Assembly (NCBI GenBank): GCA_951799425.1
Contig: OX637410.1
Span: 3,410,001-3,474,000, forward strand
Length of the DNA: 64,000 nt
From: Ilex aquifolium
Taxonomy: Eukaryota > Streptophyta > Magnoliopsida > Aquifoliales > Aquifoliaceae
Direction: 5' to 3'
Shown here: positions 2,490 to 61,875 of the stretch, one piece after another
Position numbering within the stretch: position 1 is the stretch's first letter
How the letters are laid out: every line of letters begins with the position of its first letter
Notes under the pieces: model-generated
Database searches by the model: none
What the model was told of the DNA's origin: nothing
What the model saw: only the letters and a program-made list of their open reading frames with translations
Translations under genes and position numbers: made by a program

Positions 2490-3063
2490 ACTACCGGTTG
2501 GCTACCGGTAGCTGATCTTTACTGGACCATTGGCTACCGGTAGCTGATTTTGGCTACCGGTAGTCACTACCCAGATTTTCTACTTCCACTTTCAATGCAT
2601 TTGTGACCCATTTAGAGGTCGAATTGGAAAATGTTCATGAGATACACTTTTGTAGCCCTAGATGTCTAATATCTACTGTAAAAATTTCAGGTCATTTGGA
2701 ATTAAGAATAAAAAGTTATGATCGAAATAGTAGACAGTGTCCAAAATCCTTTATACCCAAATTTTCTCTAAAATGTGTTTTAACTCCAAAATACTTCCTA
2801 ACTTCTAATACACCTCATATTACCTCTCCCAAGGTTTTTCGACCTTCCGGATTCAATGGAAGCATTATTTTGACCTAAAAACCTTTAGAAACTTGTCTAT
2901 TCACCCTTTCCAAGTTTAAACATCTTCGAAGCTTAACTTCCCAATCAATTCGCATCTCTAGTTTTTATTCCTATCGTCACTACTCATATCCATGTTTTTA
3001 CAACAATTATTTACTATATATATCTATATACATATCTATAAAAGAAAAATACGGGGTGTTACA
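2490..3063 (-). mobile_element. Family-A LTR, antisense fragment
   Basis: It aligns closely with the antisense family-A LTR at 11835-14016 (compare 2600-2720 with 13530-13650) and ends CGGGGTGTTACA at 3063, the inverted form of the family start TGTAACACCCC. The left part is displaced beyond the window by the Athila insertion at 2489/2490. It interrupts a family-B LTR, whose sequence resumes at 3064. Confidence 0.8.
2491..2572. promoter_or_regulatory. Dyad array, word CTACCGGTAG (family-A LTR)
   Basis: Perfect palindromes CTACCGGTAG lie at 2502-2511, 2534-2543 and 2554-2563, with a degenerate copy at 2491-2500. Spacers include ACTGGA, and the array ends CCCAGATTTT. The Athila LTR edge at 2489 directly abuts this array. 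Confidence 0.85.
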
Positions 3064-4530
3064 GATAACATGTTAGTTATTGTTGTCGATATATGCTTAG
3101 TGATATATGGACGGTATAATGATATTTGGTGATTTTATGCCTATGAGATATAATTGCCATGGTGTAGGTTGAATGTGGAAAATTGCTCATTTGGCATGCA
3201 TTGCATCTTGAGCATGATATTGCATCACATTCATGGGCATAAGTCATGAGTGGTGGTGTGTGTATGCATGATTGATCACCTCATTTGGTGGTTGATGTGT
3301 GGACTCGGGAAAGTTGGATTGAAGGTCCGGCTGAGTCGCATGGTTGCATGGGAAAAACTTGTGTCGGGTATAGCAAGAAGGGCTAGACACTCCCTCGGGT
3401 GCGAATCCCGGCTATTGGTTTATACACTTCCGTCGGTGCGAGTCCAAAAAAGTGTAACGGCGTACGGAGCCGGTGGTGCAATTCCAAAAATCCGTTGCCC
3501 AACAAAGACACATGGTTTTATTTTATAAAATACTCATTTAATGAGTGTCATCCAACAATGATTTGGTTTGTTAACAAATGAGTTTTATTTAAAACAATCG
3601 TTGGATGGATTTTCGTCAAAAGACGGTTTTATTTCACAAGTGAAATGCATTGTGTTATGGGAGTCGGTGAAGACTCGGGTTAAGGTTACATGAGTGAGTT
3701 CATCTCATTTCATAGCATGACATGAAGATTCCTCTCAAGGGATTGCAATTTCTTGATATGAAAAATAATGTTGTTTGAAATGTGTTGCATGTGACATTGC
3801 ATGGCATCTAGGTTGGGGAGTACCCTCTGTAGGGGATACTCTATTGAGCGTAGCTCACCCTATACGGAAAAATATTTCAGGTGGAAGATACACACCAGTG
3901 GACGACGCTCACTCGGGGCCCCAAGGATGAAGAGAGGCCACTTGTGGCTTTATTTTGGGTTTTTGTAAACTAAGTAAGAGAACTTAGTTTTGAACAAGTA
4001 AAATTATGTAATTAATTGTAATAGAAATTGTAGTAATCATGTTTTGATGTATAAATACATGTCGTATAAGTTTGGGTTGAATTTGGTAATGTTTGGAATG
4101 AATTGGAATTGGAAAACAGGAGAAACAGGCAAAAGTGGGCAGGGCGTATCGGTACAGTGTACCGGTACAGAGCTGTCCAGAAGGCAGAGCGTACCGGTAC
4201 GGCGTACTGGTACTGCCAGGACCAGTGAGCCCACCGTACCGGTACACTCTCCAAAACTCAGAATTTTTTTTTTATTTTTTTGGCGAGTCTTTGGGCTATA
4301 TTTTCCTTCCTTCCAATGTTATAAATGGACAATAATAGGATACCAATGGTGGTATATTGGACCTCGGATGGGTCAACCAATCGAAAGCAATTGGACTTGT
4401 ATTGTTTTTATAAATCCCGGTAAAGGGAATGTGGTGCCGTGGTGTCGGGTCAACCGGCATCCACGGGTATTCCGCGGGTTGATGGGTAATCATGGGTTGA
4501 TCAACGGACCCCCGGATTTTGGGGCATCAC
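3064..4530 (+). mobile_element. Family-B LTR, sense, 3-prime portion
   Basis: It matches the 3-prime part of the solo family-B LTR at 8471-10850, including GATACTCTATTGAGYGT and ATAAATGGACAATAATAG, and ends GGGGCATCACA at 4530. The 5-prime part lies left of the window behind the nested family-A LTR. Its right edge cuts the minus-strand chromovirus integrase. A target copy after the LTR would be TTTCC (4531-4535), which cannot be checked here. Confidence 0.75.
4147..4327 (+). promoter_or_regulatory. Dyad array, word GTACCGGTAC, with TATAAATG downstream (family-B LTR)
   Basis: Perfect GTACCGGTAC occurs at 4159-4168, 4191-4200 and 4236-4245, with decayed copies such as GTACTGGTAC between them. 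Spacers hold GTCCAGAAGG. TATAAATG at 4320-4327 lies 75 bp downstream, the same spacing as in the solo family-B LTR near 10600. Confidence 0.8.
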
Positions 4531-6338: not shown

Positions 6339-7205
6339 CTACTGGAATGCCTTCTCAAACGAGTCATCCCACTGAAACTTGACCTCCTTCCTGATCAATC
6401 TTGTCATAGGTGCGGCTAGTCGGGAGAAGTCCTCAATGAATCTCCGATAATATCCCGCCAATCCTAAGAAATTACGTATCACAAAGACTAACTTCGGTCT
6501 CTCCCAACTCATGACTGCCTCAACCTTCTCCGGGTCCACTGATACACTCGAAGTGGACACCACGTGTCCTAGAAATTTCACATCCGTTAGCCAAAATTCA
6601 CACTTGCTGAACTTGGCGTACAACTGATGGTCTCTCAAGGTCTGGAGAGCAATCCTCAAATGACCCTCATGCTCCTCCTCAGACTTGGAGTAGATCAGGA
6701 TATCATCAATGAAGCCCATGACAAACTGATGAAGATAGGGTTGGAATACCTATGCATGAGATCCATGAATGCCGCCGGGGCATTTGTCAACCCAAACGGC
6801 ATCACAATGAACACGAAATACCCATACCGCATCCTGAATGCCATCTTAGGGATATCTGCCTCCCTAATCCTCAACTGATGGTATCATGTGCGTAGATCTA
6901 TCTTGGAGTAGACCCGTGCCCCTCTCAGTTGATCAAATAAATCATCAATCCTCAGCAGTGGGTACCTATTCTTGATGGTGACCCGATTCAACTACCGGTA
7001 GTCTATACAAAGTCTTAGGGTCTTATCCTTCTTCTTGGCAAACAATACCGGAGCACCCCAATGTGAGGTACTCGGTCTAAAGAAACCCTTGTCCAATAAT
7101 TCTTATAACTGGACTTTGAGTTCTTGCAACTTCGCATGTGCGATTCTATGCGGTGTCAAAGAAATGTGAGATGCACTGGGTTGTAACCTAATAGTGAAGT
7201 CTACA
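6339..7205 (-). pseudogene. pol: Reverse transcriptase of the chromovirus-like pol, broken
   Basis: On the minus strand the domain starts with ISLTPHRIAHAKLQELK, then [52 protein letters not shown], the catalytic FIDDILIYS (about 6690-6720) and the connection block [15 protein letters not shown] to [17 protein letters not shown]. At least four stops and a frameshift near 6720-6760 inactivate it. At 7205/7206 it is interrupted by a solo family-A LTR; the frame resumes at 11763 with PPHRDIDF. Confidence 0.85.
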
Positions 7206-8470: not shown

Positions 8471-10850
8471 TGTAAAACCCGGGTAAAATTGAATTTTTAT
8501 GAAAGGGGGCAAAACGGTAAATTATCACTTCTGTACAGGTGGAAAACCTGAATTTTTCTAGAACTCGGATGACGAAACGGATCTCACCGTTGGATTCGTC
8601 TCGCGAAATCTAGTTATCCTGTCAAATTTCGTCGAATTTTGAGATAGTCGAATTTTTCGCGTTTTACGAAGCGGTCGGGTCTCGGGTGACCCAAAAAAAT
8701 GAAATTTTTAATAAAATTTTAAATTTTAGAAAATAATTTAAATCAAGTTAAAATAAAAATATTTTGAACTTGAATCGGGACGAAATTTAATTATTTCGGG
8801 GCGAAAACGGACCCAGAAAAAGAAGGTGGTGTGGCGTGTTGTGGACCAAGCAATTAAAGAGTATATATAGGGGGAGAAAATCTGATTTCTCCCCATTTAT
8901 TCAGCTGGTTCTAACGTGAGAAGAGAAGAGAGGGAAAGGAGAGAAAAAAGAGAGAAAATTCAACTTCTCTCTACGATCTACGCCTCCTCGTCGCTCGAAT
9001 CAACACGAGCCAAGAACAAAAGTTGTTCTCCTCGCCGAGGGCTACAAAACCATACCAAGGAGGTTGGGTTTGGGCGAGATTTCAAGGACGAGATTTTGGG
9101 CAAGTGAAGATTCTAGCTTGAATCGGATTTTTGAAGCTTCTCAACGTCGTTTTACGCTTCAAGAGGTAGGGTTTCATCCTAATTAGGTTTATTTTCAACC
9201 TAGAATGTTTATATGGAATGGGTGGGTAGGTTAGATAATTTAACACTTGCCTATGGTGATGAGATTGGTGAAATGGGTATGGAAAATAAGTAGAATAAAT
9301 TTTATCTTGAATTGGGTTGTGAGATTAACCTAATGTGATTCTTGAGTTATGTGAATTGTGGGCATGTTATGTGTTTACATTATGCCTTGAGAATTAAGTG
9401 TGTTATTGCTTGATTATGTGATGACATGCTTGGGTGTTGTTTCTAGATAAAATGTTGATATGTACACATTGATATAATGACATTGTGAAGAATTATGAGA
9501 ATTATATGCTTATGATATAATTTGCCATGAGATATGTGGAATGCGTTGAAATAGTTCATATGTCATTCATAACATATTGAACATTGGGTCATTGTTGCAA
9601 TGAGACATCATATTGCATATGCACGGGAACATCGCATTTTGTGGGTGTGTGTGCATGGTTGTTGTCAACACCACACTTGGTGGATGACGGGTGGGCTCGA
9701 GTAAGCTTGGTTGAAGACCTGGCCGAGTCTCACGGTTTGCATGGTTAGTAGGGTTGGGGTTAGCAAGAAGGGCTAGAAGATCCCTCGGGTGCAAGGCCCG
9801 GTGATTGGGATACGCACTCCCTTGGTTCGGTCCATGAAGTGTGTGGGTGTACGCGGAACCCTCAGTGGAAGTCCGTAAATTCCGTGTGGGTTGAGTGACC
9901 CTTGATGTAAGTCCATGAACATCCACCCCTACAAAGACCCTAGATTGGTAAATGTCATTTGATGTGTAACATAGATGACAAATTCATACACATTGGCACT
10001 TGCATGTGTTGAGGAGCTGGGAAGGGCTCGGGTTGATGTGTGTGAGTGAGTCTCATCTCATTTCATGGCATGACACAGTAGATTCCAACATGGAATGCAT
10101 ATTCTAAATTGGAATGTTAGGAGTTGTTGATTGTTGGCATGTGAACATTTCATATGTATCTAGGTTGGGGAGTAGCCTCTTTAGGAGATACTCTATTGAG
10201 TGTGGCTCACCCTATACGGGAAAAATATTTTAGGTGCGGGATATACGCCGGTGGATGGCTCCCAATTCGAGCCCCGTGGATGAAGAAAGCCGGAATGTGG
10301 CATTATTTTGAGTTTTTGTAAAATTATTATGAAAATTTAGTTTTGGCATGTAAATATATGGAATTGCTTGTAATAGGTATTGTACGTAGCATGTTTTATG
10401 TGAAAAGTTTCTTTAAACATGTATGGGATGGTTTGGAATGGAATTGATGGGATTGGAAATTGAAAACAGGTGAAACAGGCAAAACTGGGTAAGGCGTACC
10501 GGTAGAGCATACCGGTACAACGTGGTCCAGTAGGCACAACGTACCAGTACGCCATACCGGTACGCTTTCCAAAAATCTGAAATTTTAAAACTGTTTTGCC
10601 AAGCTTTTGGGCTATGTGTTTCCTCCCTTCAAATGTTATAAATGGACAATAATAGACTACCAATGGTGGTATGTTAGACCTCGGATGGGTCAACCGATTA
10701 AAAGTATATAGACTTTATTTTTCTTTTATAATCCCGGTCAAGGGTATGCTATTGACGTGATGTCGGGTCGTGTGACAATCACGGGTACTTTCACGGGTTG
10801 ATGGGTTATCAACAGTTAATAAAGGATCCCCCGGTTTTAGGGGCGTCACA
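8471..10850 (+). mobile_element. Solo LTR, family B, sense, nested in the family-A solo LTR
   Basis: It begins TGTAAAACCCGGG and ends GGGGCGTCACA, 2380 bp. Perfect 5-bp target duplications CTTTG flank it (8466-8470 and 10851-10855). A TATATATA-containing sequence lies near 8862 and a second TATA (TATAAATG, 10637-10644) near the 3-prime end, preceded by a dyad array. No coding sequence is attached. Confidence 0.92.
10497..10644 (+). promoter_or_regulatory. Dyad array, word TACCGGTA, with TATAAATG downstream (family-B solo LTR)
   Basis: TACCGGTA occurs at 10497-10504, 10510-10517 and 10555-10562, with a CpG-decayed GTACCAGTAC at 10541-10550. The spacer holds GGTCCAGTAGG. TATAAATG at 10637-10644 lies 75 bp downstream, as in the copy near 4320. 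Confidence 0.8.
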
Positions 10851-11160: not shown

Positions 11161-11290
11161 TATTTATAATTCTAAAAATGGATAAAAATATCAACACAAA
11201 TCGTTCAACTTCAGCCCGGTGCATCCGGACGCGTGTTTCTCCCGTCCGGACGCGTCTGACAGCATACCGCCTACTTCCAGCTTGATTTTG
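11161..11290 (-). promoter_or_regulatory. Dyad array, word GTCCGGAC, with TATA box (family-A solo LTR)
   Basis: Two words, ATCCGGACGCG (about 11223-11233) and CGTCCGGACGCG (11243-11254), lie at the place where other family-A LTRs carry CGTACCGGTACG. TATTTATA at 11161-11168 is TATAAATA on the LTR-sense strand, about 55-75 bp away. The distal side carries ACTTCCAGCTTGATTTT, as in the copy near 13516. Confidence 0.75.
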
Positions 11291-13438: not shown

Positions 13439-13520
13439 CGTACCGGTACGCGTACCGGTACGGTTTGGCTACTGGAGTTCGGCGTACCGGTACGGTTGGA
13501 CTGCCAGATTTTTGTTCCAA
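13439..13520 (-). promoter_or_regulatory. Dyad array, word CGTACCGGTACG (family-A solo LTR)
   Basis: Three perfect 12-bp palindromes CGTACCGGTACG lie at 13439-13450, 13451-13462 and 13483-13494; the first two are directly adjacent. Spacers contain ACTGGAG, and the array ends GCCAGATTTTT. In the LTR sense the downstream side has TTTAAAAC near 13400, where the copy near 28385 has TATAAAA. Confidence 0.85.
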
Positions 13521-16025: not shown

Positions 16026-16028
16026 AGC

Positions 16029-16362: not shown

Positions 16363-17967
16363 TGACTTTATCCGAAATTTTTACACCCAAGTGTAGGCGG
16401 TCAAGTTGTAGTTATAATCCAGTTAAGTCCGGAGTCGAATCCACAAGGAACTAATATTTGTGTTTTGGAGTAAATAGTGATAGAGACCAAAGTGACTGGA
16501 ACCCTTGAGATTTGAAGTTTTGATGTTTATGGAATTTCCTGGACAGAATATAAAATTCTTTCCAAAGGGTTTTACTAGACAAATTATAATATTCTCTCAA
16601 ATGTAAAAGTTATCCTTTAGCTCGAGGATCTGAACATGTAGTCAATCATCTGATTGTTATATTTGTGCTTGAGAACTTAATTAACCCCTGTGTCAATAGC
16701 AAGTTAATTGGAGGATAAAGATGGACTGTGAGAATTAAGAGCATGGTTCCGATGTCTTTGTAGAGGTTTACAAGAATTGTCTGTGCCGGGACTCAACCCG
16801 TCTACAAACAAGCAAGTAATTCTACAAGTCATCCAACAACTGTGTTAGTATTCCATTCTTAGTTGAAGCACAATAATGGAGAAGATTGAAATGTAGTCAT
16901 GAAGATCTAGCTGGAGTACTTGCAAAGAACCAATGAATCCTCCTATGCCAAAAGTCATCTTGTCTTAGAAAGGACTCATGGTTGTACAAAGTACCTTGAC
17001 TTTGCTAGATGCATTCAATCATTTAATAAGCAATCAAAAGATAAAGCATTAAACATAAACGAAATGCACAAATATAACTTCCAAATGATTTATACATGTC
17101 CATCACCTCTTACTAAAGAGTGAATGATAAACTACTCACCCTTAATGGCTTTGAGAAAGCTAGAAAAGTGAGTGATTCTCATCCCTCCAAGTAGAGAGGT
17201 TACAAGGTAAAATAAACTACACAGTGAGCCTATCTTCGACGAAGAATAAGTGAATTCCCCATGATCCGGATGAAAAATCAACCACTCTGCATACTGTCCG
17301 GGGAATACGTTCGAACGTGGGATGGCGTTCGAACATTGACTCCTGTCTTTGTGATGGGCGTTCGAACGCTAACTGAAGTTTGAATGTAATACTCAAGTGA
17401 CTTTTTTCTTGCACAGTGAAGAGCTGTAACTTGCCACGTGTCATCACCCTAGCATTCTTCTGGGGGTCCTTAAATAATTCAAGATAGCGTTCGAACGTGG
17501 ATTGTTGTTCGAACATTGTACTCAAGTAGATCTTTGTTCTTCTTCTCAGGGAATAACTGCAACACGCCATATGCCATCACCCTAGCACTGTTCTAGGGGC
17601 CCTCAAATAATTCAAGATAGCATTCGAACGTGGATTGGCGTTCGAACGTTGTACTCAAGTAGCTCTTTGTTCTTCTTCTCAGGGAATAGCTGCAACACAT
17701 CATATGCCATCACCCTAGCACTATTCTAGGGGCCCTCAAGTATTTCAAGATGGCGTTTGAACGTGGATTGACGTTCGAACATGGATGCCTTGCTTTAAAC
17801 TTCTCTAATTTTATTCCAGAACACGTGGCCGTTGCATGAAAGGTTGATGTTGATTGACTTTAGGCCCTTGTACAATCTTTTTCCTTGAAATGTCATCATT
17901 GAAACTTTATCAAAGCATAATTAGTCTTGTACAAGCATAGTAACTTGCTAATTTTAACTATTCATCA
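16363..17967 (-). mobile_element. 3-prime LTR of the minus-strand Athila element
   Basis: It aligns along its length with the 5-prime LTR at 34039-35913. It is 1605 bp against 1875 bp because about 270 bp is missing at the point corresponding to 34925-35202. The deletion joins two AAGTGAAT repeats. It contains the CGTTCGAACG dyad array. Confidence 0.9.
17308..17781 (-). promoter_or_regulatory. Dyad array, word CGTTCGAACG (Athila 3-prime LTR)
   Basis: CGTTCGAACG or close variants recur in pairs, for example at 17308-17317, 17335-17343, near 17350, 17487, 17629 and 17640, ending near 17772-17781. The pairs (word, about 10-12 bp, word) sit in a longer unit of about 150-180 bp containing TCACCCTAGCA and CAAGTAGCTCTTTGTTCTTC. 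Decayed copies show TTTGAA or TTCAAA at the core, as expected for loss of the central CpG. Confidence 0.85.
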
Positions 17968-20271: not shown

Positions 20272-21875
20272 TGTCACTCTCCCTTGGGATAGTGTCAAAA
20301 GAAAGGGCAAGAGGAAAGGAAAATGAGATGGTGGAAATGTGAAATATGGATGCACAAAAATTGTGTGTGTGTGTACAAAAGTGCTCCCCAAGCGCAAGGA
20401 GACTTTCGCGGGTCGTGTTTTACTTGGTGGTATTCCAAGGTCGTTTCCACGGGGAAGGAAGTAAACAAAGGGGAAGGTGATTTTGAGTAAAAGAAAGTGT
20501 AAAATCTTTGTGGTTGAAAATTTGTTTGGTGAGTGTGTGTTGATGAAAATGAAGTGAGAAACAAATGTTGGCAAACCCAAGAGATTACTCCACTAGGAAT
20601 GCCATCTCGAGTCGAATCCCTCCTCAAATATAGCATGAATGAACGATTGATTCGTGGGAAGCTAGGGATAAGAGGGGTGAATATCTAAGCATAAACCGTG
20701 ACTAGGCCTACGGAATATCAAAGACTCACCAATTTATCCACCCTCAACCCAGTCAAACCGAACCATTGATCTCTGAAAAAGGGAGGAGAATGAGTTGAAA
20801 TGGCATACCCAAGTGGAGGTTCCCTTGGTTTTGCCAACTAGAAGATTTAGCTACTCATGATTGAAAATGAAATCAATAAGGTAATGAGAATGCCTTTCAA
20901 AGAGATGAAGTTCTTGAGTACATAAATGCAATAAAACATAAGCTAGAAGAGAATGCAGTTAAAACCCATTTTACAGCTAAGAAAATGAAGAACTTTGTTG
21001 CATTAATGGTAGAAGCTTAAAGAAGCATTAAACTAGCAATGCACTTGAAGGAGAACAACATTAATGATATTAAATGAAGCTTCAAAAGTTCTTACAGCAA
21101 ATTACAAGACAATGTAATGAAGAAAATGGAAAAATCTCAAGTTTATCTCTCTAGAACACTATTCATCTTCTTCCCTAGACTTTCTCTCTCTATATCTCTC
21201 TATTTTCGGTTTTTGGCTGAATGCCTCTGCTGGAGATCCTCTTCCCTCCAAAAACGTCCTTGGAGAGGTACCCTAGTCTTCAGAATTGACCTCCATCTGT
21301 AGGGGTGCAGGCAGGATGGCTGGGCAGAGGGGTTGCAGAGCTTGTATGCACACCCAGCTCCTCTTCTCTTCTCTCTCCTCATTAATCACCTAGACTCTAA
21401 AACTTGCAATCAAGGGTGTGATAGAGATGAATAGTGTTGTGGGCATGTCAGGGGAGCATGTGGGATCTGTTGGTAGGACCCTCGAAGCAGCAGACATGAG
21501 TTGCAGAGCAGTTGGGCATATCAGGCAACGCGTACCGGTACGGCGAACTCCAGTGGCTTCTGCGTACCGGTATGCGTACCGGTACGATTAACTCCAGTAA
21601 CCTAGCGTACCGGTACACGTACCGATACGATTTGGCTGACTTCTTGATTTTATGATTTCCTCCTCTCCTGAGCTATCCCCAAGCTACTTTTTTGTCCCCA
21701 TTTGCCTCAATTGATTTGGGAAGGCCTTAAGAAGCCTCTTTTAACACCTGTTAATTGCAAACACCAAATATTATTGTTAAGAACACAATTAACCTAACTC
21801 CCATCATTTAATCTCCAACAACAATTAAAATAACATGATTTAGCACATAAAATATACAAAGTTTTGTGCTAATCA
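20272..21875 (-). mobile_element. Family-D LTR, antisense, inserted in the third ORF
   Basis: The right edge is clear: the minus strand starts TGATTAGCACAA, as do the plus-strand family-D LTRs at 36610 and (TGATTCACACAA) 52370. It matches them through the block near 20395-20450 (CGTGTTTTACTTGGTGGTATTCC against 38120-38170). The left edge is placed at TGTCACTCTCCC (20272); similarity may extend to about 20248. No internal region and no matching target duplication were found, so it is a solo or truncated LTR. It splits the ORF and supplies its new stop codon. Confidence 0.75.
21531..21630 (-). promoter_or_regulatory. Dyad array, word CGTACCGGTACG (family-D LTR)
   Basis: CGTACCGGTACG lies at 21531-21542 and 21575-21586, with further copies at about 21566-21573 and 21606-21630, some decayed. 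Spacers carry AACTCCAGT twice. The two plus-strand family-D LTRs carry CTTCCGGAAG or CTACCGGTAG at the same place. Confidence 0.85.
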
Positions 21876-22594
21876 ATCATCTCAGTCATTATCAAGGATG
21901 GGAGGTCGATGCTTTGGTTCTTGCCTGTAGTGTATAGTAATTGGGCCATCTCCGGGAGAATCTCGTTCTTGCGTCCAATGGGGGCAAGGTTCGGCATGAC
22001 AATCAAATTTAGCATTTTATATTTATCCGTCAATTCCCCTTGCCTAAAGAATCGCCTTCCTCCCCATGCAAATGTTGACAATCCCGTCAACTCTACTCCA
22101 ACCACATCCATCTCCATATTCCTCCTCGGGGGGTAGCTGGACCTTGGTACTCGTGGTACGACCCTCATCTCCACAATATAGTTCTCGTCGACATTGATGT
22201 GAGCCCCCCTCACATATGTCTTGATCGCCCCGTTCACAATCTCGGCATTGGAGTAAAACTCCCTCACCAACTCCTTAAGCGTATCACCACCATTTCTCAA
22301 ATACATATTCCAACCTCTCACCTCCATATTTGCATAAATTCCCAACTCCGCAAAATCCAACAACTTAATGGTACGTTCACAAACAATGGCTTGGTTTTGA
22401 AAGAAATTTTCATACCTATTGGCCTTTAGAGCACTAGGGAAGCGAGTTCTATCGTACCTTTGGACCAATGGTGGCCTTCCCTCCCTTTGCTCCATCACCT
22501 CTTCCACAATGTTGGGTTCTTGGTTGGCCGCCTTTCGCCTAGCGGGCATTTTCATTCTAGGAGGCCTTTTTCGGATTTTGGGGTTTGGGGGCAA
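21876..22594 (-). pseudogene. Third (envelope-position) ORF of the Athila element, N-terminal part; plant transposon protein-like
   Basis: The minus strand has an open frame of about 240 codons from the ATG at 22594. It begins with a basic stretch (MPPNPKIRKRPPRMKMPARRK). It then shows YDRTRFPSALKANRYENFF, VRGWNMYLRNGG, LVREFYSNAEIVNGAIKTYVRG, NVDENYIVEMRVVPR and PNLAPIGRKNEILPEMAQLLY. The arrangement ERGW...LVREFYxN...xxVRG resembles the domain often annotated in plants as putative plant transposon protein (Pfam PF20167 as I recall). It lies downstream of pol, where Athila elements carry their env-like ORF, but I see no signal peptide or membrane span. The basic N-terminus would suit a nuclear or nucleic-acid-binding protein (inference). 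The LTR at 21875 truncates it. Confidence 0.75.
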
Positions 22595-22774: not shown

Positions 22775-23089
22775 TATTTATACCCAAGCAGCCAACGTTG
22801 GAACGTTACTGACGTTCGAACGAGGATGGAAATAATTTAAAAAGAAGGTTCGAAAGTTAAACTGTCGTTCGAACGACAGTTGCTCCCAGTACTTTTGATG
22901 TCCTGTAGAGATCAAAGTACTGTAAACTCATCTCGTTCGAACGTGAGGATGGCGTTCGAACGTGGGGTACTAGTTCAAACGTTCATCAGGTGTTCGAACG
23001 TGGGGTGCTCTCAGTACTTTTAATGTTCTGTAGAGGCCAAAGTACTGTGAGCTCCTGGCGTTCGAACGTGAACTGGCGTTCGAACGCCA
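22775..23089 (-). promoter_or_regulatory. Internal promoter of the Athila third ORF: CGTTCGAACG array plus TATAAATA
   Basis: TATTTATA at 22775-22782 reads TATAAATA on the minus strand, about 180 bp before the ATG. Directly upstream are dyad words at 22813-22822, 22864-22877, 22934-22943, 22953-22962, 22991-22999, 23059-23068 and 23074-23089. Two extend much further: 22861-22880 is a perfect 20-bp palindrome and 23074-23089 a perfect 16-bp one. The core word is the one used in the LTRs of this element. Confidence 0.8.
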
Positions 23090-26118: not shown

Positions 26119-26364
26119 GTACCGGTACTGGGTACCGGTACTGAATGGTACCGGTACTGAGTACCGGTACCCCAATTCCAGAAGGTTCCTTGTACCGGTA
26201 CTGGGTACCGGTGCTGAATGGTACCGGTACTCAGTACCGGTACCCCGATTCCAGAAGGTTTCTTGTACCGGTACTGAATGGTACCGGTACTGAGTACCGG
26301 TACTACCGAAACCAGACTGTCTATTTTAAGTCGCGAACAACCGGTTTTTCCCCCACTATAAATA
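26119..26364 (+). promoter_or_regulatory. Dyad array, word GTACCGGTAC, with TATAAATA (family-A solo LTR)
   Basis: About ten GTACCGGTAC words, nearly all perfect, lie at 26119-26304, for example 26119-26128, 26132-26141, 26147-26156 and 26161-26170. They form two to three higher-order repeats separated by CCAATTCCAGAAGGTT or CCGATTCCAGAAGGTT. TATAAATA at 26357-26364 is 53 bp downstream. The low decay suggests the youngest array in the window. Confidence 0.9.
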
Positions 26365-28382: not shown

Positions 28383-28500
28383 TTTTATACTTAGCCAAAT
28401 CCCGACTTTTATTGTTTAAAATTTCTGATTTTTACCGACAGTACTGGTACGGTTTGCTCTCGGGTCATCGGGGTACTGGTACGCCGTACCGGTACGGTTT
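28383..28500 (-). promoter_or_regulatory. Dyad array with TATAAAA (antisense family-A solo LTR)
   Basis: CGTACCGGTACG at 28485-28496 is perfect; GTACTGGTAC at 28441-28450 and near 28473 are CpG-decayed. TTTTATA at 28383-28389 is TATAAAA in the LTR sense, 52 bp away. Confidence 0.75.
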
Positions 28501-34038: not shown

Positions 34039-35913
34039 TGACTTGATCCGAAATGTGTACACCCAAGTGCAGGCGGTCAAGTTGTAGTTATAATCCAGTT
34101 AAGTCCGGAGTCGAATCCACAGGGAACTAATGTTGGTGTTTCGAAGTAAATAGTGACAGAGACCAAAGTGACTGGAGCCCTTGAGATTTGAAGTTATGAT
34201 ATTTATGGAATTTCCTGGACAGGATATAAGATTCTTTCCAAAGGATTTTTATAGAAAAAATATAATATTCTCTCAAATGTAAAAGTCGTCCTTTAGCTCG
34301 ATGATCTGAACATGTAGTCAATCATCCGGTTGTTATATTTGTGCTTGAGAACTCAATTAATCCCTGTGTCAACAACAAGTTAATTGGAAGATAAAGATGG
34401 ACTGTGAGAATTAAGAGCATGGTTCCGATGTCTTTGTAGAGGTTTACAAGAATTGTCTGTGCCGAGACTCAACCCGTCTACAAACAAGCAAGTAATTCTA
34501 CAATTCATCCAACAACTGTGTTAGTATTCCATTCTTAGTTGAAGCACAATAATGGTGAAGATTGATATGTAGTTATGAAGATCTAGTTGGAGTACTTGCA
34601 AAGAACCAATGAATTCTCCTATGCCAAGAGTCATCTTGTCTTAGAAAGGACTCATGGTTGTACAAAGTACCTTAGCTTTGCTAGATGCATTCAATCATTC
34701 AATAAGCACTCAAAAGATAAAACATTAAGCATAAACAAAATGCACAAATATAACTTTCAAATGATTTATACATGTCAATCACCTCTTACTAAAGAGTGAA
34801 TGAGAAACTACTCACCCTTCATGACTTTGAGAAAGTTAGAAAAGTGAGTGATTCTCATCCCTCCAAATAGAGGGGTTACAAGGTAAAATAAACTACACAA
34901 TGAGCCTATATTCGACGAAGAATAAGTGAATCACTTTCCACCCTTCCAGACTACAAGAGAGCTAGAAAGGTGGAAGAGTTTCACTTCTCTAAGAGAAGAA
35001 GGAAGCTTTTACAATGGAAGCTAATGAAACTAATAATGAAAGTAGAAGAAAGCTAGTTACTTTTGGAGGGTTTCTTCCTCTTCCAAAAGATCTTTATCTC
35101 TGTATATCTATCTCTATGTATATCTCTCTCTATATCTCTCCAAAGAGGAGGGGGTAAAGAAGAGTAAAAGAATAGTTCTTCGTGCTCAAAGTCCAAGTGA
35201 ATGCCCCAAGATCCGGATGGAAAATCAACCACTCTGCATACTGTCTGGGGAATATGTTCGAACGTGGGATGGCGTTCAAACGTTGACTCTTGTCTTTTAT
35301 GATGGGCGTTTGAACACTAACTGGAGTTTGAACGTAATACTCAAGTGGCTTTTGTCTTGCACAGTGAAGAGCTGTAACTTGCCACGTGTCATCACCCTAG
35401 CACTCTTCTAGGGGTCCTCAAATAATTAAAGATAGCGTTCGAACGTGGATTGACATTCAAACGTTGTACTCAAGTAGCTCTATGTTCTTCTTCTCAAGGA
35501 ATAGCTGCAACACACCATATCCCATCACCTTAGCACTCTTGTGGGGGCCCTCAAATAATTCAAGATAGCGTTCGAACGTGGATTAGCGTTTGAACGTTGT
35601 ACTCTAGTAGCTCTTTGTTCTTCTTCTCAGGGAATAGCTGCACGCCATATGCCATCACCCTAGCACTGTTCTGGGGGTCCTTAATTATTTTAAGATGGTG
35701 TTCGAATGTGGATTGACGTTCGAACGTGAATGCCTTGCTTCAAACTTCTCCAATTTTCTTCCATAACATGTGGGTGTTGCATGAAAGTTTGATGTTTATT
35801 GACTTTAGGCCCTTGTACAATTTTTTTCCCTGAAAATGTCATCATTGAAACTCTATCAAAGCATAATTAGTCTTATACAAGCATAGTAACTTGCTAATTT
35901 TAACTATTCATCA
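34039..35913 (-). mobile_element. 5-prime LTR of the minus-strand Athila element
   Basis: 1875 bp, TGATGAATAG to AAGTCA in element sense. The right flank GTACC (35914-35918) matches the left flank of the 3-prime LTR. It keeps about 270 bp (34925-35202) that the 3-prime LTR lacks. A TATCTCTC/TATATCTC-rich low-complexity stretch lies at 35090-35150. I see no clear TATA box. Confidence 0.92.
35256..35727 (-). promoter_or_regulatory. Dyad array, word CGTTCGAACG (Athila 5-prime LTR)
   Basis: It is the counterpart of 17308-17781. Words include GTTCGAAC at 35256-35263, CGTTCGAACG near 35435 and 35570, and 35717-35726, plus decayed GTTCAAAC and GTTTGAAC. The spacer AACTGGAGTTTGAACG near 35320 carries the companion CTGGAG. 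Confidence 0.85.
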
Positions 35914-36609
35914 GTACCGGTACCTCAAACACATGGTACCGATACCTAACCCTTTTGTCTTCCAGATTTTCCCATTCGCCAGGTACCGATACTTAACCAC
36001 TTAGGTACCAGTAGCTAAGCCTACTATTTTCTAGATACCGGTACCTACATGTCGTAGTACCAGTACCTGAGCCCACTGTCCATCAAGGTACCGGTATCTT
36101 CGGCTTGGTACCAGTACTTGAGCCCACTGAAATCTAGGTACTGGTATTCGGTCGAGGTATCAATATCTAGGCTATCCGACAACGTGGTACCAGTACTTAA
36201 TGTATGCTCAAAATACAGTCCATAACAGTTTATTAAATGTTCTCTTCCCACAATTTACAATTCAAAACAAATTACGCCATTGTTTTCCAAAAATGTAATT
36301 TAAAGCCACAACTCGACTTTCTTCATCAACAAGGGCCCAAGTGAGAGCCGTCCACTGGCACTTGTCCTGCACCTGAAATGTTACCCCATAAAAGGTGAGT
36401 CACACTCAATAGGGTATCTCCTAAATAGGTTACCTCTCAACCCAGATGCATATGAAATGTTCACATGCAATTCAAGAAATAGTAATTCTTAGTTAAGTCC
36501 GAGTTGTACCACAAAGATCGAAGAAAATTGGTTTAAAGGTTGAAATTGCTTTATAAAACAAGTGTAGAAATTTTAAAATGGAATTATCAATTGGAAAATG
36601 AATCCTTAG
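35914..36609 (-). mobile_element. 5-prime LTR (family B) of the chromovirus-like element, outer part, with GGTACC-type dyad array
   Basis: It continues the family-B LTR interrupted at 16362. In antisense it matches the family-B block with GATACTCTATTGAGTGT (here GATACCCTATTGAGTGT, near 36400). From 35914 to about 36195 it carries a dyad array (GTACCGGTACC, then decayed GGTACCGATACC, GGTACCAGTAC and similar) with spacers CTTCCAGATTTT and GAGCCCACTG. Similarity to other family-B LTRs fades after about 36480; the rest up to the family-D LTR at 36610 may be diverged LTR. Confidence 0.75.
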
Positions 36610-38313
36610 TGATTAGCACAACATATTGCATATATTGTATGTTGTTATACCCTTTTATACTTGCTTTTGTTGAGAATTTGGAAAGAAATGCATTTAATCT
36701 AACTTTTAATGAAGTTTTGTGTGAATGTAGGTGAAGAATTGTAAATGGGTTGAGTTAAGCTCCCATCGTTGTGTTTAAAGTCAATGAAGATGAGGGGATA
36801 GCTTAAAGGAAGGATTGGAAGGTGAAGAAACTAAGAAAAAGGCAATTTGGATGAAAACCTTCCGGAAGATTTGCACTTGGTCTGCCTATGTACTGCCTAA
36901 ACCTTTTGGAATGTTTTGTCTACTGGAATAAACCTTCCGGAAGCTTTGCAGACTTTTCGGAAGGTTTGGGTCACTGGACTGCTGTTTTCACTGTTCTTGC
37001 ATAAACCTTTCGGAAGGTTTGCATCAACCTTTCGGAAGGTTTTGTCCAGAAAAGCTAGATAGCTTGTAACTCAAGCTCTGCCATTTGGGGGTCCCACCTA
37101 TGATTCTCCCACTTTTCCCCTGACATCCCTTACACATCTACATGCCTCCCCACACCTAAGGTTGTACTTTGGAAGCCCAAGTATTTATGAGGAAGAGAGT
37201 GAAGAAGGAAGCCTGGGAAATTGTAGGCTAGGCTTATCCTAACCTGCCCAAGCCATCAACTCGGCCTGCTATGGATGGGAAGCCTGTCACACATGCTAGA
37301 GGACCTCCATGGACGAAAATGAAAAGACACACTTCACATTATTGAGCATTGTAGAGAGAGAGCTCAAGGATGAAGACATAGTTTGGAGAGAGAAGTTAGA
37401 TTTTTCATTTCCTTTACCCATTTCACTTGTAATCTTCTGCAAGACTCTTGTAAGCTTTATTTATTGCACTTAATGTCATTTATTTCAAGTGCATTGCAAG
37501 TTTATTCAAGTATCTTTCAATCTACCATTGTTACATTGAAGTTTTACATTTCAAGCTTTTTAGTTGGGTATTAAATACACTTATTTTTTTAGTTTCACTT
37601 CTCTTCACTTTAATACAAGTTTAACTTCCATCTCAATACCATGTCTCTTTACACATTGTATGTTCTTGCATTAAATATGAGTGGCTAAGCTTTAAGTTGG
37701 TTAATCCAAGGGAGAATTCCTCTTGGGTATGCTAAATCAACTCGTTTTCATTCTTCCTCATAATGTAAGATGGTTTGGTTTGACTAGGTTGAGTGTGGAC
37801 ATGGTTGTGAGTTCTTGGTACACCGTAGACTTTTCACGGGGTATGCTTGAATCCTCACCTCCATTTTAGTCCCTCGCTTCCTACGAATCAATCGAACATC
37901 TAGGCATCATTGGAAGAATGTCTTGAGTTGATTTGACATTCCCATTGGAATGTCCTCTTTGGATTAGCCAACACTTGTTTTCATTGAATTTTCCATCAAG
38001 AACACAACTCACCAAAACACATATCAAAAGATTTTTACACTTTTCCTTTTTCACCAAAATCACCTTCAACATAATTCACCTTCCTTCCCTGAGGAGATGA
38101 CCTTGGAATATCAATTCCAAGTAAAACACGACACTCAAAAGTCTCTCTACGCTTGGAGAGCACTTTTGTACACACACAAACACATTTCATTCACACACCC
38201 GTTTTCCCATTTCTTGCATGATATCCAAGGGAGAGTGAAACTAACCTAATCGTATAAGCCACATACACACTACCGGAATCATGATAAAAAATTAGGGTTG
38301 ACGGAATAAATCA
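36610..38313 (+). mobile_element. Family-D LTR, 5-prime LTR of plus-strand Athila unit 1
   Basis: It begins TGATTAGCACAA and ends AATAAATCA, 9 bp before the primer site. It matches 52370-54028 along its length and the antisense copy at 20272-21875. It holds a CTTCCGGAAG array (36857-37045). TATTTATG near 37181 is a weak TATA candidate. The right end is inferred from the primer site; the sequence from about 38241 is absent in the antisense copy. Confidence 0.8.
36857..37045 (+). promoter_or_regulatory. Dyad array, word CTTCCGGAAG (family-D LTR, unit 1)
   Basis: CTTCCGGAAG is perfect at 36859-36868 and 36934-36943. Near 37004-37021 and 37027-37044, AAACCTTTCGGAAGGTTT is a one-step decay of an 18-bp palindrome. 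Spacers hold CTACTGGA and CACTGGAC. Confidence 0.85.
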
Positions 38314-52369: not shown

Positions 52370-54028
52370 TGATTCACACAAAATATTGCACTTCATTTAC
52401 ACATTTGCACCCCTTTTAGACTTGTTTTTGTGGTAAATATGGGAGGAATTGCATTATTTCTACAATTGATGATGTTTCGGTATGTTTGCAGGCAAATAGT
52501 TGGAAATGGTGTGAGTTAAGCCCCCATCGTAGAGCTTAAAGTCAATGGAGATGAAGGGGAGGCTTAACGGGTAGCTTGGAAGGTGAAAAGATCAAGAAAG
52601 GAGTAAACTAAGTAAAAACCTATCGGTAGGTTTGCTCATAAAACTACCTGTAGGTTTTGCACACTAGATTTCAACCTACCGCAAACCTTCCGGAAGATTT
52701 TGGCTACTAGAGTAAAACCTACCGGTAGGTTTGGCCATCGACCTACCAGTAGGTTTTGCTGAAAAATGCCTGAAGCCTACAAATCAAGTTCTATCACTTG
52801 GGGGTCCCACCTATGATTCTTCCACTTGTCCCCTGACATCCCTTATACACATACATGCCTCCCCACACCTAGGGTTGGACTTTGGAGGCCATTGCATTTA
52901 TGAGGATGAGAGAGAAGGGAGAGTCTGGGAAGTTGCAGGCTAGGCTTGTCCTAGCTTGCCCAAGCCATCAACGTAGCCTCCTATGGATGGGAGGCCTGTC
53001 ACACATGCTAGAGGACCTCCATGGACGAAAATGCAAACTACACTTTAGATTATGGAGGATTGTAGAGCATTTTAGAGAGAGAAGCTCAAGGAAAAAGACA
53101 GTTTTAGAGAGAGAAGTTAGATTTTTGCAATTCTTCTACCCATTTCACTTGTAGTCTTCTGTAAGACTCTTGTAAGCTTCATTTATTGCACTTAATGTCA
53201 TTTATTTCAAGTGTATTGCAAGTTTAGTCAAGTATCTTTCAATCTACCCTTGTTACATTCAAGTTTTACATTTCAAGCTCTTTAGTTGGGTATTCAATGC
53301 ACTTATTTTTGTAGTTTCACTTCTTTTCACTTTAATACAAGTTTAACTTCATTTCTTCACAATGTCTCTTTACTTTATGTATGTTCTTGCATTAAATATG
53401 AGTAGCTAAGTTTTAAGTTGGCTAATCCAAGGGAGAATTCTTCTTGGGTATGTTAAATCAACTCTTTTTTATTCCTCCTCGTAGTGTAAGACGGTTTGTT
53501 TGACTAGGTTGAGTGTAGACGTGGTTGTGAGTTCTTGACACACTGTAGACTTGTCACGGGGTATGCTTAAATCCTCACCTTCGTTTTAGTCTCTCACTTC
53601 CTGCTAATCAATCGAACGTTTAGGCACCATTGGAAGAATATATTCAGTTGATTTGGCATTCCCATTGGAATGACCTCTTTATATTAGCCAACACTTGTTT
53701 GCATTTCTTTTCATCAGGAACACAACTCACCAAAACACATATTCAACAGATTTTTACACTTTTCTATTTTCACAAAAATCAACTTCAACACAATTCACCT
53801 TCCTTCCCTGAGGAGACGACCATGGAATACCAATTCCAAGTAAAACACGACACTCGAAAGTCTCTCTACGCTTGGGGAGCACTTTTGTACACACACACAT
53901 TTCATTCACACACTTGTTTTCCCATTTCTTCCATGATATCCGAGAGAGAGTGACACTCACCTAACCTTATAAGCCACATACACATTACCGGAGTCATGGT
54001 CGGAGATTAGGAACAAAGAAATAAGTCA
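52370..54028 (+). mobile_element. Family-D LTR, 5-prime LTR of plus-strand unit 3
   Basis: It begins TGATTCACACAA and ends AATAAGTCA, 8 bp before the primer site at 54037. It matches 36610-38313 closely except in the dyad array. TTTATGAGG near 52897 is a weak TATA candidate at the place of TATTTATG near 37181. The flanks TATAT and AGCAT do not form a target duplication, as expected for an LTR between two internal regions. Confidence 0.82.
52616..52760 (+). promoter_or_regulatory. Dyad array, mixed words CTACCGGTAG and CTTCCGGAAG (family-D LTR, unit 3)
   Basis: AAACCTACCGGTAGGTTT at 52715-52732 is a perfect 18-bp palindrome. CTTCCGGAAG at 52687-52696 is the word of unit 1. Others are decayed by one base, such as CTATCGGTAG, CTACCTGTAG and CTACCAGTAG. 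Both words share the outer frame AAACCT...AGGTTT. Confidence 0.85.
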
Positions 54029-54036
54029 AGCATTTT

Positions 54037-54055
54037 TGACGCAGTTGCCGGGAAG
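54037..54055 (+). other. Decayed primer binding site of unit 3
   Basis: TGACGCAGTTGCCGGGAAG differs from the intact unit 2 site by two substitutions and one lost G. Confidence 0.8.
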
Positions 54056-59675: not shown

Positions 59676-61774
59676 CTGTTCTTATGGTCTTTAGTATACA
59701 GTTATTTTTACTTACTTTAACTGTTTATGCTTACTTATTTTATCTTTGCGTATAGTGTTGTCTTTCTTAGCTGCAGATATTGGTCTTTTTTGTCAAAGCT
59801 CAAGTGCGAGGTATTCTCTAACCCTACTCATCTTTTTATAGTCATTCATCGCATATCATATCTTTTTTGTTGCATTGAGTACAATGCATGAATCAAGTTG
59901 AGGGGTGAGGTGCACCATTTGCATGATACACCAATTTTTGTGGAAATATTTTGTTGATAATACCAATTTTTGTGGTGAAATTCACCTTTCACATATCCTA
60001 CAGATTTTTGTTTACAATAGTTGCAAATTATGCAGAAAATTTGAAACTTTTTGTGAAAAATATCTGAATGTTGATCTGTATTTCCCTATTTAGAGTGTTA
60101 TGGGTTTGTTGATATGTTGATCTTTGCGTTGAACCTTGAACACATGAGCACATTATAGAAGTTCATCCAATGCTTGAGTAGCACATATGTGTTTGCTTTT
60201 GAACTCAACCTTAAGTGCACCTTGAATGTGTAATTTTGACAATTTATGGATTGAGTTCACATTTTAGTTCTTGACATGAATAGTGGAGATGAGTAAGAAC
60301 CCATGAGAGCTTTAGTGCTAACCCTTGTTGGACGAAACTTACATTTACTCAAGGAACAATTTTTCAAATTCTAAATTTGTTCAATAATCTCAGTATGCTT
60401 CTTTTGGTTAGATGCATTTGGGTAGTTGATTGACTTTGTCTTGAAATGCAATATGCTCTCCCATGCCTATCTAGAAATGATATTAGGCCATCCTTGATTT
60501 TCTTTGAGCTTTAGCCTTTTTCTTGTGAAAATTTTATCCCTAGTGCCGTGATTGAGCCTTAATTGTAAATTCGTTTCCATGCCACACATTTGACCAAGCC
60601 AATGCAAAATGATAAAAATCTACCTCACCTTGGTTGTTCCTAGAGCTGAATATGAGTAATCATAAAAGAGAAAGAATTATGGTGCGAAAACTTAACCAAA
60701 TGGATTAATGAAGTTGAATTCATAGAGTTGAACGGAAAAGAATGAAAAATCCAAGAAAATGAGAAAAAGGGGGTGAAAAGAAGAAAAGAATGACAAAAGA
60801 GAAGGAAAATGTTAGGGAAAAGAAAGAAAAGAAACAAAGAGTGTGGTGACGGTGTTAGACTGAAAATCCCATGAAAAGGGAGATATTTTTGAAATAAAAG
60901 TCATTCACTCGGAACAACCCTCTTTGCTATCCTCTATCCTTCATTTCGCTTACCTCAATATCACCCCAAGGCCTCATTACAACCCGTGAAAATCCTAAAT
61001 GATCTAGAGAATCATGGGGGATGCATACCTTTAAAGAAAAAGAGAAGTTGATTTTGCTATCTAATGCCCTAGCATTCCTTTCATGAGATTATGCCAATGT
61101 TGTTTCATTTTCATGCATGTCCTTCAATTTTGGATTATATGTGAGCGTACTTAATTTTGTGAACAAGATTCTATCTCACATATACACATGAAGAGCATGC
61201 CAGGATAACCATAGTGTGATTCATTCTTGAGAGACACCCTTTGTGAGTTTTGTATCGAAGCTTAATTTGGATAGCGAAAGTGAATGTGAGTTCCGTAATG
61301 ATTAAATTACATGTCCATTTCACACACACACGAGTTTGAAAATGAATGTGTAGGTGCATACTCTAGACTAGCATTTAAAGTCATGGTGTTGCTCATATGT
61401 GCTTGGTTCGGGTATTTGAACGATGTGTTATGCAGCCCTATGCTTACGGGATGGGAGAATAATGCTCAAACTTTTGATATTTGTAGGAATTAGGAATGCC
61501 CTTTTCGGTTGAATATGTATTTTACATTGTGGGTATTCATTTTTGTAGTTAAATGTAGAAATCCATGCCTTGTGTGTTGAAAGCATCGAAATTTTAAATC
61601 ATATTGCAATTTCGGTAATGACTTGGGGCATGATCGTTCAATTGTGGTTCACAAGTGTAGCTCATGTTTTTGGAAGAGTAGATGTCATGAATATGGAGTT
61701 AGAATGTGTAGGGATTGAAATAAAGTGGAGTGGAAGTGAAATTGGGAAGCACAAGGGTTTTGTGTAAAAAGGTA
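59676..61774 (+). other. Post-pol noncoding stretch of unit 3, with hairpin
   Basis: The first 1250 bp matches units 1 and 2, with hairpin TGCATTGAGTACAATGCA (59871-59888) and AAGTTGAGGGGTGAGG (59895-59910). After about 60930 it enters sequence absent from the other two units. I see no credible ORF. Confidence 0.75.
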
Positions 61775-61875
61775 AAACCTACCTGTAGTTTTGGTTCAAA
61801 ACCTTCCGGTAGGTTTCATTCTAGTGCACAAAACCTACCGATAGGTTTTCATCGACCTACCAGTAGGTTTTGCCA
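61775..61875 (+). promoter_or_regulatory. Dyad array, word CTACCGGTAG, upstream of the unit 3 third ORF
   Basis: AAACCTACCTGTAG, AAACCTTCCGGTAGGTTT, AAACCTACCGATAGGTTT and ACCTACCAGTAGGTTT are all within one or two bases of the 18-bp palindrome found in the LTR of this unit. The third word is a hybrid of the two LTR words. The ORF starts about 385 bp downstream. I see no clear TATA box. Confidence 0.8.

What the first reader, a model, noticed from the sequence alone, without database searches (positions are those of the whole stretch)
2490..61875. Arrays of dyad-symmetric words upstream of TATA boxes in every LTR family
At least fifteen places carry 3-12 copies of a short perfect palindrome separated by 10-40 bp spacers: 2491-2572, 4147-4250, 10497-10562, 11223-11254, 13439-13494, 17308-17781, 21531-21630, 22813-23089, 26119-26304, 28441-28496, 35256-35727, 35914-36195, 36857-37045, 52616-52760, 61775-61875. 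Where a TATA box is visible (4320, 10637, 11161, 22775, 26357, 28383) it lies 30-75 bp on the promoter side. Families A, B, D and the Athila LTRs are otherwise unrelated, so shared descent does not explain the shared architecture. All words but one centre on CCGG or TCGA. I know of no described plant LTR feature of this kind.
Basis: partly seen in the sequence, partly recalled or inferred. Interest (0 to 1): 0.9.

Follow-up and report, generated by a model that had tools for sequence, protein, structure and literature searches.

The report
Palindrome arrays at plant retrotransposon promoters
Several jumping genes in this stretch of plant DNA carry clusters of short mirror-symmetric DNA words, often just in front of a predicted on-switch, much like a feature already known from another group of plant jumping genes; these are probably landing sites for a paired regulator protein, and the new points are which elements have them and that a second cluster sits before an extra gene inside the element.

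Summary
The arrays are real. The window holds 10 clusters of at least three identical 8-bp palindromes within 300 bp; 200 shuffles held none. A symmetry-blind repeat scan recovers 7 of the 15 listed arrays among its 12 regions. A TATAWAW box lies 31-75 bp downstream in 6 of 15, against 4.4% of random points.

There is prior art: Sirevirus (Ty1/copia) LTRs carry palindromic boxes just upstream of the TATA box and again upstream of the ENV gene (PMC2829016). Families A and D are related. Two of the 15 arrays are not in LTRs but precede PF20167 ORFs, one of them at the 3' end of an Athila-type (Ty3/gypsy) element.

What seems new: the layout in Ty3/gypsy elements; the same word in one element's LTR and before its 3' ORF; symmetric turnover of words between LTRs 85% identical outside the arrays. 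Best explanation: binding sites for homodimeric regulators at the LTR promoter and an internal promoter. The bolder reading, that the PF20167 protein is that regulator, is untested. Verdict: new variant of a known kind.

The parts
2491..2572 (-). Array D4: CTACCGGTAG words (two as GCTACCGGTAGC) in a truncated D-type LTR (LTR start TGTAACACCCCG at 3063, minus)
   Evidence: seems cut by the 5' end of an Athila-type LTR at about 2488 (boundary inferred)
2002..2224 (-).
1986..1993 (-). TATAAATA of the E1 LTR, 15 bp after the last dyad; primer site TGGCGCCGTTGCCGGGG follows at 657(-)
4147..4250 (+). Array A1: TACCGGTA words; TATA at 4320; LTR end GGGGCATCACA at 4531
10497..10562 (+). Array A2: TACCGGTA words; TATA at 10637; LTR end at 10850
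11223..11254 (-). Array D5: two words, GCGTCCGGACG and GCGTCCGGATG; TATA at 11168(-); LTR start TGTAAGACCCCG at 11762(-)
13439..13494 (-). Array D3: three CGTACCGGTACG words in LTR 14016-11835(-)
17308..17781 (-). Array B3: GTTCGAAC words, partly on a 133-bp tandem unit, in an Athila-type LTR (17967-16360)
21531..21630 (-). Array C4: CGTACCGGTACG words in a solo C-type LTR (21875-20195, minus, TSD ATGAT on both sides) inserted into a PF20167 ORF
22813..23089 (-). Array env1: GTTCGAAC words upstream of a TATA box and a PF20167 ORF (not in an LTR)
22775..22782 (-). TATA box (TATAAATA) between array env1 and the PF20167 ORF
21872..22555 (-). PF20167 (Transposase_32) ORF, first part (profile 2-150, above the Pfam cut-off); interrupted by solo LTR C4, coding resumes at about 20194(-)
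   Evidence: the second part has no Pfam hit of its own, but matches relatives P0006 and P0007 at 75-77%
26119..26304 (+). Array D1: 10 GTACCGGTAC words and one variant; TATA at 26357; LTR 25856-27981
28441..28496 (-). Array D2: one perfect and two decayed words; TATA at 28389(-)
35256..35727 (-). Array B2: GTTCGAAC words, partly on a 133-bp unit, in Athila-type LTR 35913-34036(-), degenerate primer site at 34032(-)
35914..36195 (-). Array A3: mostly decayed GGTACCGGTACC words in an A-type LTR cut by LTR B2
36857..37045 (+). Array C1: AAACCTTYCGGAAGGTTT words in Athila-type LTR (about 36603-38316)
52616..52760 (+). Array C2: AAACCTACCGGTAGGTTT words, and one CCTTCCGGAAG word, in Athila-type LTR (about 52366-54040)
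61775..61875 (+). Array env3: decayed AAACCTACCGGTAGGTTT words in the 3' internal region of the element that begins with LTR C2; homologous to part of array C2
62349..63644 (+). PF20167 ORF downstream of array env3, in two pieces split by an in-frame stop (profile 3-58 and 97-175; both below the Pfam cut-off, 20.6 and 44.1 against 45 bits)

Best explanation
The arrays are cis-regulatory DNA: clusters of dyad-symmetric binding sites for sequence-specific, probably homodimeric DNA-binding proteins, placed upstream of the core promoter in the U3 part of Ty3/gypsy LTRs. In Athila-type elements a second array of the same kind drives an internal promoter for the 3' PF20167 ORF. Several sites side by side allow cooperative binding and keep the promoter open or strongly active. 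The words turn over in concert within an array (unit duplication plus replacement), but symmetry is kept, as expected if the binding protein, or which paralogue is used, changes while the dimeric mode of recognition stays. Shown: arrays, symmetry, clustering, position relative to TATA motifs in 6 of 15 (7 of 16 with E1), CpG retained in the words, symmetric replacement in one LTR pair. Inferred: protein binding, dimer, activation, the internal promoter. The most likely binder is a host transcription factor family; which one is not determined.
For: Clusters absent from 200 shuffles; a symmetry-blind scan recovers 7 of 15. Six of 15 have TATAWAW 31-75 bp downstream, against 4.4% of random points; the added E1 array ends 15 bp before TATAAATA. 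CpG o/e 1.05 in arrays (159 CpG in 2622 bp), 0.48 elsewhere, and higher than the 500-bp flanks in 15 of 15. The excess lies in the words: array DNA outside them has o/e 0.27 (18 CpG in 1433 bp), so CpG is kept in the words where neighbours have lost it (partly circular, as most words are defined by a CG centre). Complementarity of paired positions is 90-98% out to +-5 over 60 sites, against 44-58% at positions 2-5 when right halves are exchanged between arrays (sites were picked for symmetry, so only the match across differing words counts). LTRs C1 and C2 (84.6% identical outside arrays, 68.5% in them): 4 of 5 ungapped aligned words show T to A at -3 together with A to T at +3; the fifth is unchanged at both; a sixth is gapped. 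Spacings of 60 bp or less, near-equal values merged per array (26 values), cluster near a helical period (R 0.54; 14 of 2000 random sets as high). LTR and internal arrays share the layout, and in one element the word (C2 and env3). Sirevirus boxes have the same layout.
Against: No binding or expression data. Nine of 15 arrays have no TATAWAW 20-140 bp downstream, the B and C LTR arrays among them. Three of the six that do also have one upstream. The words differ so much (TACCGGTA, TTCCGGAA, GTCCGGAC, GTTCGAAC, AAATATC-N6-GATATTT) that one factor is unlikely to bind them all. Exchange of right halves within arrays gives about the same complementarity as observed, so there is no covariation inside arrays. 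Related LTRs are not independent, which weakens the TATA, spacing and covariation numbers. Array identity is below flank identity in 5 of 6 LTR pairs, clearly in 3, and above it in A1-A2; that fits turnover but also relaxed constraint.
Confidence: 0.6

Rival explanations
1. RNA-level role: the arrays fold into hairpins in LTR transcripts. They serve the element (for example 3' RNA structure), or they are the places where the host makes small RNAs and starts silencing.
For: Twelve of the 15 arrays were folded, four of them in part; 10 of 12 fold far better than dinucleotide shuffles (z -3.5 to -10.4; the other two -1.4 and -1.9). In maize, Sirevirus palindrome clusters are small-RNA hotspots (passages of PMC10760457 and PMC5311732 citing Bousios 2016).
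Against: Any set of self-complementary words folds well, so the fold does not discriminate. Most words have no loop, which suits a DNA dimer better than a hairpin. If they lie upstream of the start site they are absent from the 5' end of the transcript (inference). Spacing near helical period.
Confidence: 0.14
2. Element-encoded regulator: the PF20167 protein, made from the internal promoter, binds the words in its own promoter and in the LTR, in the manner of VANC proteins or retroviral transactivators, and the words co-evolve with it.
For: Arrays precede both PF20167 ORFs found. Same word in LTR C2 and array env3 of one element, another word before the other ORF. The window ORF and relatives carry, read by eye, a basic patch and an acidic tail, and a helix (29 residues, block pLDDT 74-81) with a heptad pattern (78-100% of core positions hydrophobic in 4 sequences, best register of 7, no control run). 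A sunflower Athila 3' ORF with PF20167 has a predicted nuclear signal (PMC11728184, passages). VANC targets are short motifs in tandem repeats that change together (PMC5735166, passages).
Against: No DNA-binding domain shown; both models are poor overall (mean pLDDT 36 and 54). No PF20167 hit among the A/D-region pieces scanned, though A/D interiors in the window are fragmentary. Only one element shows both arrays. [quoted passage not shown]
Confidence: 0.14
3. Neutral repeats: short palindromes were multiplied by slippage or template switching in fast-evolving, unconstrained U3 DNA.
For: Several arrays sit on longer tandem units (133, 73, 43, 42 bp). Array identity is below flank identity in 5 of 6 LTR pairs. 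Other tandem repeats exist in the same LTRs.
Against: Slippage does not explain why the repeated word is palindromic in several lineages, why changes are symmetric, why CpG is kept in the words but lost around them, or the position next to TATA motifs in 6 of 15.
Confidence: 0.1

Closest known systems
Sirevirus repeated motifs (RM boxes; Bousios et al. 2010, PMC2829016; abstract, passages, sections 9 and 19 seen)
   Same: Palindromic words, 3-14 copies per 3' LTR, mostly in the upstream half of the LTR, CGG-CCG core in all but one, CpG islands, TATA box on average 37 bp after the island, words differing between related elements, extra copies upstream of the 3' ENV gene.
   Different: Those are Ty1/copia; the passages seen compare Sireviruses with other Ty1/copia elements and call the motif Sirevirus-specific. 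Here the elements are Ty3/gypsy. Core words are mostly zero-spacer TACCGGTA or GTTCGAAC, one array is AT-rich; the 3' ORF is PF20167.
Maize Sirevirus LTR palindromes as small-RNA hotspots (Bousios et al. 2016, seen only as cited in passages of PMC10760457 and PMC5311732)
   Same: Palindrome clusters in LTR cis-regions, described as rapidly evolving.
   Different: Small-RNA data not available here.
VANDAL / VANC anti-silencing system (PMC5735166, passages)
   Same: Short motifs multiplied in tandem repeats of non-coding element DNA, changing together between related copies.
   Different: DNA transposons; VANC21 motif not palindromic; the protein is known, here it is not.
Grande gene23 (Gomez-Orte 2013, seen only as cited in passages of PMC7264820 and PMC11963269)
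   Same: A plant retrotransposon 3' accessory gene transcribed from its own promoter; nuclear protein.
   Different: Antisense in Grande; here sense, with palindrome array; promoter here only predicted.
Tnt1 / Tto1 U3 repeat boxes (recalled; symmetry of Tnt1 box I is mentioned in PMC2829016 section 19)
   Same: Repeated transcription-factor sites in U3 of plant LTRs.
   Different: Few copies, Ty1/copia, activity tested (recalled).

Membership tests
Sirevirus RM boxes | Palindromic word in multiple copies in the LTR | tested here: met
   of the 10 strict clusters, 9 lie in LTRs or LTR parts and one (env1) is internal
Sirevirus RM boxes | CGG-CCG core | tested here: inconclusive
   CCGG core in A, C and D words, but TTCGAA in B and env1 and AAATATC-N6-GATATTT in E1; one of 13 Sirevirus motifs also lacks the core
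Sirevirus RM boxes | CpG island shortly upstream of TATA | tested here: inconclusive
   CpG o/e 1.05 in arrays, all of the excess in the words; TATAWAW within 100 bp in 6 of 15; E1 has a TATA box but no CpG; no island caller was run
Sirevirus RM boxes | Extra copies upstream of the 3' ENV gene | tested here: inconclusive
   22813-23089 and 61775-61875 precede PF20167 ORFs; PF20167 is not shown to be an envelope, and only the second is shown to follow a pol region
Sirevirus RM boxes | Element is a Ty1/copia Sirevirus | tested here: not met
   PR then RT then INT with PF00078 and rve in the C elements (copy at 54-61 kb: RT hit below cut-off; copy at 38-45 kb: RT and INT strong). That PF00078 and this order mark Ty3/gypsy is recalled. 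Not tested for A/D elements, whose only domain evidence is a sub-cut-off gag hit
Athila-type Ty3/gypsy elements (B, C, E1) | Gypsy domain order | tested here: met
   for C elements; element E2 (with LTR B2) matches their pol region at 64-70% in blastn pieces; not tested for E1 or B3
Athila-type Ty3/gypsy elements (B, C, E1) | 3' additional ORF with PF20167 | tested here: met
   one C element; same domain in a sunflower Athila 3' ORF; not visible for B or E1 elements
Athila-type Ty3/gypsy elements (B, C, E1) | Placement by RT phylogeny | not tested
   lineage label rests on primer site (recalled as Asp-type), domain order and PF20167
VANC-like anti-silencing system | Element-encoded protein binds the motif and removes methylation | not testable with these tools
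   needs binding and methylation data

The most novel reading that the evidence does not exclude
Athila-type retrotransposons encode their own dimeric nuclear regulator (the PF20167 protein: basic patch, leucine-zipper-like helix, acidic tail), expressed from an internal promoter; it binds palindromic words that the element keeps in matched arrays before that promoter and in its LTRs, and word and protein co-evolve, giving each lineage a private on-switch or anti-silencing code.
Probability: 0.13. Interest if true: 0.87.

Novelty: new variant of a known kind. Interest (0 to 1): 0.5.

Why it matters
Palindrome arrays at promoters were reported as a Sirevirus peculiarity within Ty1/copia. Finding the same layout in Ty3/gypsy elements, with a matching array before a 3' accessory gene, suggests that unrelated plant retroelements converged on one regulatory design. 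The symmetric turnover of words makes a question testable: do these words follow a host factor, an element-encoded factor, or the silencing machinery?

Tried and rejected
Two structure predictions of PF20167 pieces (and 64/73) had mean pLDDT 36 and 54, so no fold search was made. Protein searches for PF20167 relatives gave 19 distinct proteins of 80-278 residues with no source name (in one search only 7997 candidates were scored), so the host plant was not identified. One element ORF (40710-41666) had no match among solved structures. Scans of viral contigs for integrase and PF20167 relatives confirmed none (3 and 133 pattern matches). A search of papers for the words themselves counted 452 papers; none of the 25 listed titles concerns plant LTRs and none was opened. 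A single shared binding factor was considered and set aside because the words differ too much. R2R3-MYB AC elements (ACCTACC, recalled) fit the C2 and env3 words but not C1. SBP (GTAC) sites, recalled, fit GTACCGGTAC but not CTACCGGTAG. Arrays as pure ascertainment was weakened by the symmetry-blind scan, which still missed 8 of 15. Helical spacing was first computed on redundant spacings; only the merged test is used, and related LTRs still share spacings. The CpG excess, first taken as a property of whole arrays, proved to lie in the words alone.

A claim that this architecture is not in print for Ty3/gypsy elements rests on searches 5 (20 of 126 listed), 6, 24, 25, 44 and 72 of one open-access library only, most hits seen as listings; subscription papers and preprints were not searched.


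Full report
WHAT IS THERE. All 15 listed places show repeated dyad-symmetric words, perfect or decayed. Ten of the 15 pass a strict test (at least three identical perfect 8-bp palindromes in 300 bp) that none of 200 shuffles passed. The dominant words are TACCGGTA (32 copies in the window) and GTTCGAAC (18); the commonest other palindromic 8-mers reach 10. A scan blind to symmetry found 12 regions with an 8-mer repeated at least four times in 300 bp; seven are these arrays, eight of the 15 were not recovered. The other five regions are four tandem repeats with long units and one short word. It holds no CpG.

WHERE THEY ARE. Elements were mapped by self-comparison, LTR termini, primer sites and domains. 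The C elements (36.6-64 kb, three head-to-tail, incomplete copies) have protease, reverse transcriptase and integrase in gypsy order; the protease and RT hits are below the Pfam cut-off in some copies. B LTRs (35913-34036 and 17967-16360, minus) and E1 belong to relatives: E1 shares U5 and the start of the internal region with E2 (70-74%), and E2 matches the C pol region at 64-70%. The A/D LTRs have ends TGTAACACCCC...GGGG(T/C)GTTACA or ...GGGGCRTCACA. A primer site recalled as Met-type and a weak gag hit (E 2.9e-4, below the cut-off) follow one A-type LTR end at 16029, so the gypsy label of A/D is tentative. The A/D LTRs are related mosaics, not separate families: A1, A2, D1 and D2 share one upstream flank (68-76%), D3, D4 and D5 another (73-80%), D1 and D3 most of the LTR. 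This leaves two groups of LTRs, A/D and Athila-type, whose LTR matches at the settings lie only in the words.

Two arrays are not in LTRs. Array 22813-23089 (minus) is followed by TATAAATA at 22782 and a PF20167 ORF. A solo C-type LTR (C4, 21875-20195, minus) with the target duplication ATGAT on both sides is inserted in that ORF; beyond it the coding sequence goes on, 75-77% identical to relatives P0006 and P0007 over 57-60 residues, although that piece has no Pfam hit of its own. The rest of that element is not visible. Array 61775-61875 (plus) follows the pol region of the last C element and precedes a PF20167 ORF split by a stop. It is homologous to part of the array of that element's LTR (81% over 79 columns) and has the same word.

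IS IT PROMOTER-LINKED. TATAWAW occurs 31-75 bp downstream in 6 of 15 arrays; a random stranded point has one at 20-100 bp in 4.4% of trials. With E1 as a sixteenth array, 7 of 16. The other nine have none at 20-140 bp. Upstream on the same strand, three of the six also have one, and D2 has one on the opposite strand, so the signal is not perfectly one-sided. CpG o/e is 1.05 over 2622 bp of array and 0.48 elsewhere, and each of the 15 arrays exceeds its 500-bp flanks. Outside the words, array DNA has o/e 0.27 (18 CpG in 1433 bp; words masked at up to two mismatches). So these are not islands in the ordinary sense: CpG survives in the words and is lost between them. As most words have a CG centre, this is partly circular.

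HOW THE WORDS EVOLVE. Six LTR pairs were aligned: identity in arrays against outside is 0.685/0.846 (C1-C2), 0.902/0.935 (B2-B3), 0.419/0.773 (D1-D3), 0.808/0.677 (A1-A2), 0.527/0.745 (D3-D4) and 0.591/0.599 (C2-C4): lower in five, clearly in three, higher in one. In C1 against C2, four of five ungapped aligned words carry the paired change at -3 and +3, one none, and a sixth is gapped. D3 and D4 words differ in a paired way at +-5 in three of three D4 words and at +-6 in two of three. Over 60 sites, exchange of right halves between arrays destroys complementarity at positions 2-5 (44-58% against 90-98%); exchange within arrays does not. Of 11 departures from symmetry in the inner 8 bp, 10 are of a type that C-to-T decay on one strand would give (sites were chosen for symmetry).

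WHAT IT MOST LIKELY DOES. The best reading is a set of dimer sites for DNA-binding regulators at the LTR promoter and at an internal promoter. No-loop symmetry, CpG retained in words, symmetric replacement and roughly helical spacing (14 of 2000 random sets as periodic) point to DNA rather than RNA recognition, but none is proof. The arrays fold strongly as RNA (10 of 12 tested), as any such words would, and the small-RNA reading from maize Sireviruses stays open. The self-encoded reading rests on position, word matching in one element, and features of the PF20167 protein: a basic patch and an acidic tail (read by eye), a helix with hydrophobic residues in a 3-4 heptad pattern (78-100% of core positions in the window ORF and three relatives, best register, no control), plus the predicted nuclear signal of the sunflower Athila relative (passages of PMC11728184).

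WHAT IS KNOWN. Bousios et al. 2010 (PMC2829016; abstract, passages, sections 9 and 19 seen) describe the same layout in Ty1/copia Sireviruses, including copies upstream of the ENV gene, and could not name a common binding factor. They called it Sirevirus-specific and absent from classic elements. [quoted passage not shown] Passages of PMC7264820 and PMC11963269 cite an accessory gene of Grande transcribed from its own promoter. Passages of PMC5735166 describe VANC motifs; passages of PMC12844716 discuss whether Athila-encoded extra ORFs might shape methylation. The one passage seen of PMC11302176 had nothing on the subject. I therefore rate this as a new variant of a known kind: same design, different superfamily, with an internal copy before a PF20167 gene.

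LIMITS. One window, partly truncated elements, related copies, no host name, no genome-wide test, no functional data.

Noticed in passing
2480-2500 and 35900-35920: Two Athila-type LTR 5' ends (E1 and B2) seem to abut a palindromic word inside another element's array (D4 and A3), as if integration had hit the arrays. The E1 boundary is inferred. A paper seen only in a search listing (PMC6911290) says in its title that LTR elements often target palindromes.
   Followed up: partly
26937-27321 and 12678-12803: In the D1 and D3 LTRs, downstream of the TATA position, tandem repeats carry TCCTT-NN-AAGGA dyads (10 copies in D1, 3 in D3), so dyad repeats are not confined to the upstream side.
   Followed up: partly
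36602-60937: Three head-to-tail copies of an Athila-type internal region (about 7 kb each, 84-88% identical), suggesting unequal recombination.
   Followed up: no
1556-1839: 100-bp tandem repeat with CTTGGT...ACCAAG dyads in the E1 LTR downstream of the TATA box.
   Followed up: no
22853-23050: Between the GTTCGAAC words of array env1 lie two larger imperfect inverted repeats with AGTACTTT-like arms.
   Followed up: no
25856-28640: D-type LTRs D1 (plus) and D2 (minus) lie tail to tail in inverted orientation.
   Followed up: no
6342-6749 (minus): Isolated reverse transcriptase fragment (PF00078, E 1.2e-11) of an element not assigned to any family here.
   Followed up: no
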